Origin: Candidatus Thiodiazotropha sp. (ex Myrtea sp. 'scaly one' KF741663)
GTDB taxonomy: Bacteria; Pseudomonadota; Gammaproteobacteria; Chromatiales; Chromatiaceae
Assembly: GCA_025655555.1 (NCBI GenBank)
Contig: JAHXIQ010000002.1
Location: 1 to 64,000 of the forward strand
DNA length: 64,000 bases
Direction of reading: 5' to 3'
Shown: one piece after another, positions 27,398 through 46,153 of the stretch
Layout of the letters: every line of letters starts with the position of its first letter
Numbering within the stretch: the stretch's first letter is position 1
Translations under genes and position numbers: made by a program
The notes under the pieces: model-generated
What the model saw: the letters and a program-made list of their open reading frames with translations, nothing else
Database searches by the model: none
Told to the model about the DNA's origin: nothing

Positions 27398-27434
27398 TTA
27401 GGGCCTTTTAACACTAATTCACTAGGTCCTGCTG
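27398..27434 (+). repeat. Diverged end of the MITE-like family
   Basis: 37 bases starting TTAGGGCC match the terminal repeat of the element at 43912-44182 at 31 positions, including TTAACACTAAT. They start nine bases past the isochorismatase-fold stop codon. No matching right end was found downstream, so this is a truncated or solo copy. Confidence 0.65.
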
Positions 27435-27451
27435 AGGCGAATGGATTAGCT

Positions 27452-27486
27452 CGCAGGTTGGGCCGACAAAAGAGGCCCAACCTGCG
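27452..27486 (+). terminator. 13-bp perfect hairpin after the isochorismatase-fold gene
   Basis: Arms CGCAGGTTGGGCC and GGCCCAACCTGCG around nine bases. No strong T-run follows. It lies within or just next to the MITE-like remnant, so it may be part of that element and also stop transcription. Confidence 0.55.
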
Positions 27487-27765
27487 GCTTGTTCAATACT
27501 TCCCTAATCTGATTCCTACTGCCAACAATAGTTACCTGACGTCAGTTAGCCAGAATCAGGACTTGGGCTATGGGCTGAAAAGAAGCAATCTCATCTGCAA
27601 TTAACAACCTCCACCTCCGCCAGAAAAAAATCACTCGCAAACAAATAGTTGCAGGCTGCAATCGCAATCAGCAGGCAAATCTATTTGGTATTCCGGGCTT
27701 TCCAACGACTACACTCCTTAATACTCAAAAACGCTTCGCAAGAATAAAATTAGAAAAATATTTCC
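27487..27765. other. Non-coding stretch upstream of prpE
   Basis: About 280 bases of AT-rich sequence between the hairpin and the prpE promoter. It contains TGACGTCA at 27539-27546 (a perfect 8-bp palindrome). I see no supported gene. Confidence 0.35.
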
Positions 27766-43911: not shown

Positions 43912-44182
43912 TTAGGGCCCGTTAACACTAATCCAATGCGCCCTGTTGAGCCTGAAAAAGCGCCAACCAAGGCGTGAGGAGAGAAGTTTGGTTGTTCCAA
44001 ATGAGCGACGAGCAACGCCGAGTGGCGCTTTTTCAGGCGCAACCCGAAGGGCTGGGGCTGTTTTTGCACCCAGCGGCGTTATCATTCGCTCATGTAGCCG
44101 GGCTACACCATGCTCATTCTGTCTTGCTGGGTACAAAAACAGCTCCAGCAGGGCGCATTGGATTAGTGTTAACAGGCCCTAA
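43912..44182. mobile_element. MITE-like element with 34-bp terminal inverted repeats
   Basis: A 271-base non-coding element. The terminal repeats (43912-43945 and 44149-44182) match at 33 of 34 positions, starting TTAGGGCC. Inside, arms 43945-43965 and 44023-44043 form one long hairpin (one mismatch) and arms 44051-44074 and 44126-44149 form another. A near-palindrome (TGTAGCC-GGGCTACA) caps the second. TA occurs at both borders (43913-43914 and 44180-44181), compatible with TA target duplication as in IS630/Tc1-type elements; this is inference. It carries no transposase. It lies between the lpxL-like and aldo/keto reductase genes and provides the stop codon of the latter. Confidence 0.88.
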
Positions 44183-44951
44183 GCACCGCATCCATCAGCT
44201 TCACATTCGAGGCCAGATGATCCGGGTTGATTGTACCCACGATCATGCTGCTGACGCCAGGTTGAGAAAAGATGAATTCCATTGAACGCCGCACGCCCTC
44301 TTCTCCCCGAACATGACCACTCATCAATCCTTTTTTCACGAGAACGCCTTTCCCCTCTCTCTCTGCTGCCTGCAGTACCGGCAGTTCATCATTGTAATCG
44401 AGATTACAGGTGGCCATGACCAGATCGCACGTCTCAGCAACCCGTAAGCCGCCATCAACCGTCTTGCTGGACATGCCGATGGCGCGCACCAGTCCCTTGC
44501 GTTGTAAATCACGCAGGGTCTCCAGCACAGGCTCATGTTCAAGGATCTGCATATCATCACCATGAGAATGAATCAGCACAACATCAAGATAGTCCGTCCG
44601 CAGACGCCGCAGGCTTTGCTCCACCGACAGACGGGTATGCGGGTCTGAAAAATCGAAGCGTGACTGGCCCTGTTCGAAAATTTCTCCCACCTTAGTGACG
44701 ATGACCCAATCCTGGCGATTGCCGGGCAGTAACCGACCGAGCCGCTCCTCACTGGTACCGTAAGCTGGCGCAGTATCGATCAGGTTGATGCCGAGATCCC
44801 TTGCCATGGACAACAGCCGACCCACGGCAGCATCGTCAGGGATCTCGAAACCGGCAGGATATTTTACCTGCTCATTGCGGCCGAACTTGACTGATCCCAG
44901 CCCCAAGGGACTGACTTCGATACCTGTCTTGCCAAGGAGTCTCAGATCCAT
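44169..44951 (-). CDS. Aldo/keto reductase family protein
   Basis: A 260-residue NADPH-dependent (beta/alpha)8 oxidoreductase. The catalytic tetrad can be seen: Asp in INLIDTAP, Tyr in PAYGTSEERLG, Lys in VIVTKVGE and His in LIHSHGDD. The physiological substrate is unknown. The ATG at 44951 has AAGGA nine bases upstream; a start at 44969 is less likely. It overlaps the end of the FAD oxidoreductase gene by ten bases, so hldE-FAD-AKR form one leftward transcript. The last three residues (Arg-Ala-Cys) and stop codon are read from the MITE-like element. Confidence 0.87.
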   Translation of the reverse strand: MDLRLLGKTGIEVSPLGLGSVKFGRNEQVKYPAGFEIPDDAAVGRLLSMARDLGINLIDTAPAYGTSEERLGRLLPGNRQDWVIVTKVGEIFEQGQSRFDFSDPHTRLSVEQSLRRLRTDYLDVVLIHSHGDDMQILEHEPVLETLRDLQRKGLVRAIGMSSKTVDGGLRVAETCDLVMATCNLDYNDELPVLQAAEREGKGVLVKKGLMSGHVRGEEGVRRSMEFIFSQPGVSSMIVGTINPDHLASNVKLMDAVLRAC

Positions 44952-46153
44952 AGATGTTCCTTTTCCCAAGGTGGTATTGCGGCTTGCGCAAGGGCGATGC
45001 TCAATGAAACATTTGTCGACTCTGAGGTTGGAGGTATGCCTGCCTCCGACAGCCCTGCGATGACCTGCTCGGCAAGCCGTGGTGCAAAAGCAAGCTTGGT
45101 TGGCCAGGCCACGATCAGGCCATCATGTGCCTGTAAAAAACTACTCTCAGGTCGCTGGCCATCTGACTGGCGGGGCTCCGCCCGGTCGACATTCAGCGTA
45201 CCCCATGCCACTTTCTGTAAATCCACCCAGGGCAGCAGCTGATTGAGTTCCCGCTTTGCGGCTGCTATCTGTTCCTCTTGGTTACGCCCTACACCCTGCT
45301 CGGCCACATCTCCGCCCAAATACCAGAGGGTCTTGTCGCCGGCGAGGGGATAACTGGTCACCGTCAGTCGCGGATTGGCGCTGGCACCCAGACAATGCGC
45401 ATAGAGTGGCGGCAAGTCTCCTTTGAGCATCACCATCTGAAGCGGGCGCTTTTGCATGGTTGGCTTATCCCGACCCAGACATTTGAGTAGCGCCTCATTA
45501 CCTGCGCCTGCCGTGAAGACGGTCTGCTTTGTCTCCAGCGTCTGCCAGGCACCATCTGGACCAAGCAGACTGAAGCGGCGGGCATGGTCAAAGCGCAGGC
45601 CATCCGGCCAATTCAGTTTGTAGGCGCTATCACCAAACTGGCGGGACAACTCACTGACCAGGGAAGCCACATCGAGAACCGGCTCATCCAGCCGGTAGAC
45701 CGTCCCTTTGAAGCCAGGATTGCGGAAGGCCGCGGGACGGTCATTCTCCTTCACTTCACGCACCCGGCTCTCCATTACCTTGCCGGCAAAGAATCCGGCC
45801 ATGCGTGAAATCAATCCCGATGTGGACCAGAGAAACTGATGATCAGAGAGCGTGCGTACCCGGCTCAGATCCAGTTCACCCTCTCCTGCCAGGCAGTCTC
45901 GCCAGATTCCCGGCATAGCCTTGATGGCCTGAGACGAGCCGGTCAGCTTACCGGTCAGCGCATACTTCGTACCACCATGAATGATGCCCTGAGAGGCGAG
46001 CGTCTGTACCCCTCCGAGCCCGTTGGGCTCCAGCAGGATAGCGCTGTATCCGGCTTGACGCAGACGAGCCAGCAGCCACAATCCAGCGATGCCGCCACCG
46101 AAGATAGCCACATCCACTTGAGTTGATACCGGGGAGGCTGAAACGGAACCCAC
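44942..46153 (-). CDS. FAD-dependent oxidoreductase (DAO/GlpD-like)
   Basis: A 403-residue flavoprotein. The N-terminal dinucleotide-binding motif is DVAIFGGGIAGLWLLARLRQ, followed by an acidic residue in LLEPN, and a second FAD segment near TVFTAGAGNEALL. The arrangement is like D-amino-acid oxidase and glycerol-3-phosphate dehydrogenase, but specificity cannot be assigned. The GTG at 46153 has AGGGATC upstream in the end of hldE, which stops five bases before, so it is coupled to hldE. The C-terminal part has a tryptophan-poor, Ser/Pro-rich end. Its role beside heptose synthesis is unknown. Confidence 0.8.
   Translation of the reverse strand: MGSVSASPVSTQVDVAIFGGGIAGLWLLARLRQAGYSAILLEPNGLGGVQTLASQGIIHGGTKYALTGKLTGSSQAIKAMPGIWRDCLAGEGELDLSRVRTLSDHQFLWSTSGLISRMAGFFAGKVMESRVREVKENDRPAAFRNPGFKGTVYRLDEPVLDVASLVSELSRQFGDSAYKLNWPDGLRFDHARRFSLLGPDGAWQTLETKQTVFTAGAGNEALLKCLGRDKPTMQKRPLQMVMLKGDLPPLYAHCLGASANPRLTVTSYPLAGDKTLWYLGGDVAEQGVGRNQEEQIAAAKRELNQLLPWVDLQKVAWGTLNVDRAEPRQSDGQRPESSFLQAHDGLIVAWPTKLAFAPRLAEQVIAGLSEAGIPPTSESTNVSLSIALAQAAIPPWEKEHLWI

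What the first reader, a model, noticed from the sequence alone, without database searches (positions are those of the whole stretch)
43912..44182. Complete, highly structured MITE-like element with TA ends
Terminal inverted repeats of 34 bp (33 matches) enclose two further long hairpins whose arms together span most of the 271 bases. It has TA at both borders and no coding capacity, so it should be moved in trans, if it moves. The nested hairpin layout would fold into a three-arm RNA or DNA structure, which is more than transposition needs and may act as a transcript processing or termination signal between the converging lpxL-like and AKR genes.
Basis: partly seen in the sequence, partly recalled or inferred. 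Interest (0 to 1): 0.72.

Follow-up and report, generated by a model that had tools for sequence, protein, structure and literature searches.

The report
Widespread double-hairpin mini-transposon family
A 265-base piece of non-coding mobile DNA, in a genome closely related to clam symbionts, belongs to a widespread and apparently unnamed family that has nearly the same ends as certain bacterial jumping genes but keeps its own conserved pair of hairpins, whose job is still unknown.

Summary
The element is real: 265 bp (43915-44179), TA on both sides, two hairpins inside long terminal inverted repeats. It is mobile DNA: two close Candidatus Thiodiazotropha relatives have the empty site (a third, more diverged, also lacks it), and the insertion rewrote the last codons of the aldo-keto reductase gene. 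The own genome has at least 31 paired copies; 22 of 22 genus genomes match, as do 84 of 274 sampled genomes of the class. Likely driver: an IS5-family transposase. Insertion sequences of 807-835 bp with nearly the same ends, also beside TA, occur in one of three other genomes searched for them, in a genus genome, and on four plasmids read; none was found in the own genome. The unusual part is the core: arms differ between genera but stay complementary (covariation 0.529, shuffled 0.154), while loop A is as conserved as the outer ends (0.79). Mispairs in arms show no G-U excess across genera and neighbours no convergent bias, so an RNA-processing role is unsupported. A new variant of a MITE; no prior description was found in the searches run.

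The parts
43913..43914 (.). left TA of the target duplication
   Evidence: empty site in L061/L062; TA on both sides in 51 of 57 distinct copies, YTA..TAR in 50 of 57
43915..43944 (+). left terminal inverted repeat, 30 bp; outer 14-18 bp resemble IS5-family insertion-sequence ends
43949..43965 (+). hairpin A, 5' arm
   Evidence: I3; pairs counted
43966..44022 (+). loop A, with an inner stem at 43986-43991 / 43997-44002; the most conserved inner part
   Evidence: mean pairwise identity 0.79 among 22 rows
44023..44039 (+). hairpin A, 3' arm
44040..44052 (+). junction CAACCCGAAGGGC-like motif between the two hairpins
   Evidence: identity 0.74
44053..44072 (+). hairpin B, 5' arm
   Evidence: (I2)
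44073..44127 (+). loop B, a reverse-complement counterpart of loop A
44128..44147 (+). hairpin B, 3' arm
44150..44179 (-). right terminal inverted repeat
44180..44181 (.). right TA of the target duplication
44169..44969 (-). host aldo-keto reductase ORF whose last codons and stop now come from the element
27401..27489 (+). probable decayed partial copy of the same family
   Evidence: (18.7 bits, E 0.005)

Best explanation
It is a non-autonomous mobile element (a MITE) whose ends are recognised in trans by IS5-family transposases of the NF033580 type, which fit the IS427-like layout of two ORFs in about 810-835 bp. The transposase acts at the GGGCC ends and inserts the element at YTAR sites, duplicating TA. 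Shown: copies, empty site, target duplication, matching ends on insertion sequences. Inferred: that this transposase moves it, since no transposition was observed. Between the ends lies a conserved core of two hairpins in inverted orientation. The data favour constraint on the DNA inverted repeats over an RNA fold. I infer that the conserved loops are a binding or folding site used by the transposase or a host protein when the hairpins extrude.
For: Own genome: 96 blastn matches, self-matching repeat arms included; 31 distinct paired copies, 16 of them 264-266 bp. 22 of 22 genus genomes match. Empty site in L061 and L062; L063 also lacks the element. TA both sides in 51 of 57 distinct copies. 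Of three genomes searched for the end pattern, G143 carries five 807-808 bp insertion sequences with ends TA|GGGCGTGTTAACACTAAT beside 265-bp elements with ends TA|GGGCCTGTTAACACTA; their ORFs match PF13340 and PF01609 over the cut-off and NF033580 slightly below it. Genus genome G018 has two 834-835 bp elements with one end GGGCCTGTTAACAATAAAG; both ORFs of the one scanned pass the NF033580 cut-off. Four plasmid IS5-family elements read (of 12 records found) have ends such as CTA|GGGCCTGTTAACACTA. Core: 90.0% of 2140 cells paired against 68.8 shuffled, 70 of 86 pairs with double changes, 0 of 500 shuffles as high, slid controls at most 42.8%. DNA level: G-T 57 and A-C 56 mispairs over TIR and the two arms in 25 rows.
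Against: No ORF2 match in 20 of 22 genus genomes, the own one included, so current mobility there is doubtful; two of the three genomes searched for the end pattern (G263, G055) showed no insertion-sequence-sized pair. The G143 insertion sequence and the element share only 16-19 bp at the ends, so descent by internal deletion is not shown. For an RNA role: the 23 genus rows show more G-T than A-C (42 against 20 over TIR, arm A and arm B), though these rows are related; and the inner stem of loop A keeps one G-T pair in 21 of 25 rows with no A-C cell in that stem.
Confidence: 0.85

Rival explanations
1. The hairpin arms stay complementary through a mutational process (template switching in quasi-palindromes copies one arm onto the other), not through selection; only the ends and perhaps the loops matter.
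For: Arms and inner TIR diverge freely (pairwise identity 0.39-0.58) while staying paired, with few G-T or A-C intermediates.
Against: Loop A (0.79) and the junction (0.74) are conserved though they are not arms; 24 of the 27 full elements listed are 263-266 bp long, though that list was chosen for two complete halves.
Confidence: 0.35
2. The element works as RNA: a transcript processing site, terminator or small RNA.
For: Very stable fold; in the window copy hairpin A has an A-run and a T-run in its arms; a conserved G-T pair in the inner stem of loop A and a G-T excess in the related genus rows; MITE transcripts elsewhere are cut by RNase III or RNase E or yield small RNAs (review PMC10969869, passages).
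Against: No G-U excess in TIR and arms across genera, no convergent-gene bias, no Rfam match, and the two hairpins are inverted relative to each other, so one loop is antisense in any transcript. The terminator scan was blind to such long loops.
Confidence: 0.12
3. An IS630-family (Tc1/mariner-like) transposase moves it, since the target duplication is TA.
For: TA duplication; an IS630-family transposase gene lies beside a copy in Azotobacter.
Against: No DDE_3 (PF13358) match in the own genome; the ends that I read beside that IS630 gene (TGTTATGACAC / GTGTTGAGACA) differ from the element ends.
Confidence: 0.02

Closest known systems
MITEAba12 of Acinetobacter (PMC6382973, passages read)
   Same: Non-coding MITE found across the Moraxellaceae; identity with candidate parent insertion sequences is restricted to the terminal repeats.
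   Different: 113 bp, 16-bp repeats, 9-bp duplications, weak predicted structure (about -24 to -27 kcal/mol); no conserved double-hairpin core in the passages read.
Correia and ERIC elements (review PMC10969869, passages; their sizes and ends recalled)
   Same: Small inverted-repeat intergenic elements in many copies.
   Different: RNase processing of their transcripts is reported in that review and was not measured here; I recall other ends and a simpler palindrome.
IS5-family insertion sequences, NF033580 type, IS427-like
   Same: Nearly the same outer 14-18 bp of the ends and the same TA target.
   Different: They carry the transposase; the G143 one lacks the hairpin core.
Structured RNA families of Rfam
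   Same: Conserved structure with covariation.
   Different: No Rfam 15 match on the elements; complementarity of the arms looks DNA-like.

Membership tests
MITE (non-autonomous inverted-repeat element) | short, without a transposase gene | tested here: met
   265 bp; only a 103-aa mechanical ORF runs through it
MITE (non-autonomous inverted-repeat element) | terminal inverted repeats | tested here: met
   (TIR stem 92.9% of cells paired)
MITE (non-autonomous inverted-repeat element) | target duplication and empty site | tested here: met
MITE (non-autonomous inverted-repeat element) | many dispersed copies | tested here: met
MITE (non-autonomous inverted-repeat element) | ends match a transposase-bearing element | tested here: met
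   in G143, G012, G018 and four named plasmids; not found in the own genome
Internal-deletion derivative of an IS5-family insertion sequence | inner sequence shared with the parent | tested here: not met
   only 16-19 bp at the ends shared with the G143 insertion sequence, the one compared
Moved by an IS5-family transposase | transposition observed | not testable with these tools
Structured RNA gene or element | match to a known family | tested here: not met
Structured RNA gene or element | G-U tolerated over A-C in stems | tested here: inconclusive
   not met across genera in TIR and arms (57 against 56); 42 against 20 in related genus rows; one conserved G-T pair in the inner stem of loop A

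The most novel reading that the evidence does not exclude
The conserved unit is the core, not the ends: a non-coding double-hairpin parasite, found in about a third of the sampled genera of the class (71 of 222), that has been joined to several kinds of transposase ends (GGGCCTGTTAACAC beside TA; GTTCACAC and GTTGACGT variants; GAGCCTRTCYRTGAATAA with TNA-like flanks in G042/G190; GGGGTATTCTCAATGAATAA in one G278 copy). Its loops bind a transposase or host factor on extruded or single-stranded DNA and so drive or time transposition.
Probability: 0.35. Interest if true: 0.78.

Novelty: new variant of a known kind. Interest (0 to 1): 0.56.

Why it matters
Bacterial MITEs are mostly described genome by genome and defined by their ends (my impression, recalled). 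Here an internal, non-coding double hairpin of nearly fixed length is conserved across many genera while its arms and inner repeat change together, and an insertion-sequence group with matching ends is identified. That makes a direct test possible of whether hairpins inside a MITE help transposition, and it gives a model (R1) for annotating a large, apparently unnamed repeat family.

Tried and rejected
IS630 partner: rejected. Autonomous copy at G278:C180 (two ends 2 kb apart): two separate elements around a transporter gene. Candidate at own C1:147405-149046: ordinary genes between unpaired ends. Plasmid end-only match H14: no transposase annotated within 3 kb. Partner for the GAGCC-type ends: none among plasmids with one 31-base query. 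E. coli genomes and phage records: no match. PF13586 in the own genome: none. Two PF01609 matches in the own genome: near them only weak end-like matches with 2-3 mismatches, of the kind seen in every locus of that call, so no convincing partner. Full-length covariance model: too slow. Literature searches listed nothing that names the family in its title or in the passages I read; subscription papers are mostly not held, and of the 114 papers only the 20 listed titles and abstract starts were seen.

Full report
Observation. The three inverted repeats are present as described, and the strand folds far better than its shuffles (-159.7 against -90 kcal/mol, 0 of 200 as good). The element proper is 43915-44179, 265 bp, between two TA dinucleotides.

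Empty site. A search with the neighbouring aldo-keto reductase found 14 loci in named genomes; the three closest (96, 96 and 87% identity) are Candidatus Thiodiazotropha MAGs (that their hosts are lucinid clams is recalled). That the window's own genome is of this genus is inferred from this. In L061 the gene ends GTGCTTAATATATCC; the window reads GTGCTTA, then the element, then TAATATATCC. Removing the element and one TA gives the relative's sequence at the junction; a few bases further out differ. L062 is also empty (one base differs close by) and L063, more diverged, lacks the element as well. The insertion changed the protein end from VLNISG to VLRAC. The other 11 of 14 loci are more distant and were not used for this point.

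Copies. In the own genome blastn gives 96 matching stretches, repeat arms matching each other included. From 60 loci of the own genome and its genus, 57 distinct paired copies were collected: 31 from the own genome; 38 of 57 are 264-266 bp; 51 have TA on both sides and 50 fit YTA..TAR. 22 of 22 genus genomes match. In the own genome the 18-bp end pattern has 123 hits at up to 3 mismatches against 2 for the reversed pattern. Pairing 100 listed hits gave 33 pairs and 34 unpaired ends; 34 is an upper bound, since some (for instance C5:413803) have a partner with more mismatches. Seven unpaired sites were sent to six relatives and six of the seven gave aligned relatives: some carry the same short end, others lack it, and at one site relatives hold other remnants (CTAGGGCCTAAG; a roughly 30-base stub), so these unpaired ends look like decayed copies.

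Wider family. Plasmids of Halomonas, Azotobacter, Pseudomonas aeruginosa, Methylophaga and Magnetococcus hold full or partial relatives. Oriented by the junction motif, 27 full elements align in 267 columns; RNAalifold predicts 95 pairs, 51 with double changes. Left and right halves align with each other in register (24 halves), so the element is an inverted dimer of a half of about 130 bases. Twelve candidates per genome at most were scored, so copy numbers there are lower bounds. A 265-bp copy also lies on an IMG/VR contig, the one exact match of a loop-A pattern.

Structure test. A4 holds 25 full elements: 4 from the genus, 3 from plasmids and 18 of the 29 class loci L190-L218; the other 11 were left out because one half was missing, weak, carried inserts or aligned poorly. 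With the window's structure, 90.0% of 2140 cells pair (shuffled 68.8), 70 of 86 pairs show double changes (44.6), covariation score 0.529 (0.154), and 0 of 500 shuffles reach any of the measures; slid versions give 37.9-42.8% and 0.095-0.123. The terminal-repeat stem was not among the pairs of model R1, so its 92.9% is not a product of the search; the hairpin stems were partly modelled, which favours them, and a structure taken from one row favours the unslid version somewhat. Mispairs over 25 rows: G-T 21, 19, 17 and A-C 25, 15, 16 in TIR, arm A and arm B. RNA selection should favour G-U over A-C; it does not there. Against this reading: in 23 genus rows of A2 the counts are 42 against 20, in related sequences; and the inner stem of loop A has 22 G-T cells and no A-C cell in 25 rows, nearly all from one pair kept as G-T in 21 rows. 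Mean identity among 22 rows: outer TIR 0.79 and 0.78, inner TIR 0.40 and 0.39, arms 0.44-0.58, loop A 0.79, loop B 0.60, junction 0.74.

Driver. Three genomes with elements and few contigs were searched for the end pattern. In G143, a complete genome of another family, it also marks five elements of 807-808 bp; G263 and G055 showed no such pair. The two ORFs of one copy (135 and 132 aa) match PF13340 and PF01609 over the cut-off and, each slightly below its cut-off, NF033580 'IS5 family transposase'. Ends are TA|GGGCGTGTTAACACTAAT, one base from the usual Thiodiazotropha end. In the genus, ORF2 finds relatives in 2 of 22 genomes: G018 has two 834-835 bp elements (the one scanned passes the NF033580 cut-off with both ORFs), and G012 has one that matches in two pieces and looks broken, with ends GGGCCTGTTGACACTAA / GGCCTGTTGACACTAAT. 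The other 20, the own genome included, gave no match. Of 12 plasmid records with a similar insertion sequence four were read: Enterobacter cloacae, P. aeruginosa, Cupriavidus and Polaromonas, all annotated IS5 family transposase, with ends such as GGGCCTGTTAACACTA, GGGCCTGTTAACACAA or GGGCGTGTTCACACTA beside CTA. Layout and size fit the IS427 group as tabulated in PMC3196728 (passages). The G143 insertion sequence shares only 16-19 bp with the element, as was reported for MITEAba12 and its candidate parents (PMC6382973, passages).

Ends vary, core stays. In G042/G190 the same core has ends GAGCCTRTCYRTGAATAA; in 14 copies the flanks read TNA on both sides in 12, but are exact duplicates in only 5 (my count; pattern search). 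One G278 copy starts GGGGTATTCTCAATGAATAA. No partner for the GAGCC ends was found. This suggests, but does not prove, that the core is reused with different ends.

Function. Of 54 copies (3 of the 57 lay too near the end of their locus), 12 lie between convergent, 23 between tandem and 15 between divergent ORFs and 4 have an ORF on one side only, by simple ORF calls, close to 1:2:1. Ten of 48 neighbouring ORF 3' ends reach one base into the element, so that TA plus one element base completes the stop codon. No promoter- or terminator-like site was found, but that scan takes only loops of 3-8 bases. I therefore prefer a DNA-level role of the core, most likely in transposition or maintenance; this step is inference.

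Novelty. Rfam has no match on the elements (at E <= 1 for the window copy; at gathering scores for 20 loci, where the only matches are two tRNAs in a flank). Papers: passages of PMC10969869, PMC6382973, PMC2516522, PMC3606827 and PMC3196728 were read; other hits were seen in listings only. No description of this family was found, which cover open-licence papers only; ISfinder was not available.

Noticed in passing
own genome, 24 places (L165-L188), e.g. L172; also L116-L118, L126, L147, L219: A 22-base hairpin (ACCCCAAGGGCACTTCCTTCGG) flanked by repeats of GGCGC or close variants sits at several different positions inside copies, giving 292 and 319 bp forms; 17 of 24 matches to the 23-base pattern are exact. 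Recombination between two inserts may explain the 226, 176 and 111 bp forms.
   Followed up: partly
own genome, e.g. L043, L055, L077, L080: Up to 34 of 100 listed 18-base ends have no partner; comparison with relatives suggests decayed copies, many ending near the CTAA inside the repeat.
   Followed up: partly
27401-27489: Probable decayed partial copy in the same window.
   Followed up: no
L129, L134 (Azotobacter plasmids): IS630-type element ends seem to lie exactly at the element edge, where CTA plus G makes CTAG, recalled as a preferred IS630 target.
   Followed up: no
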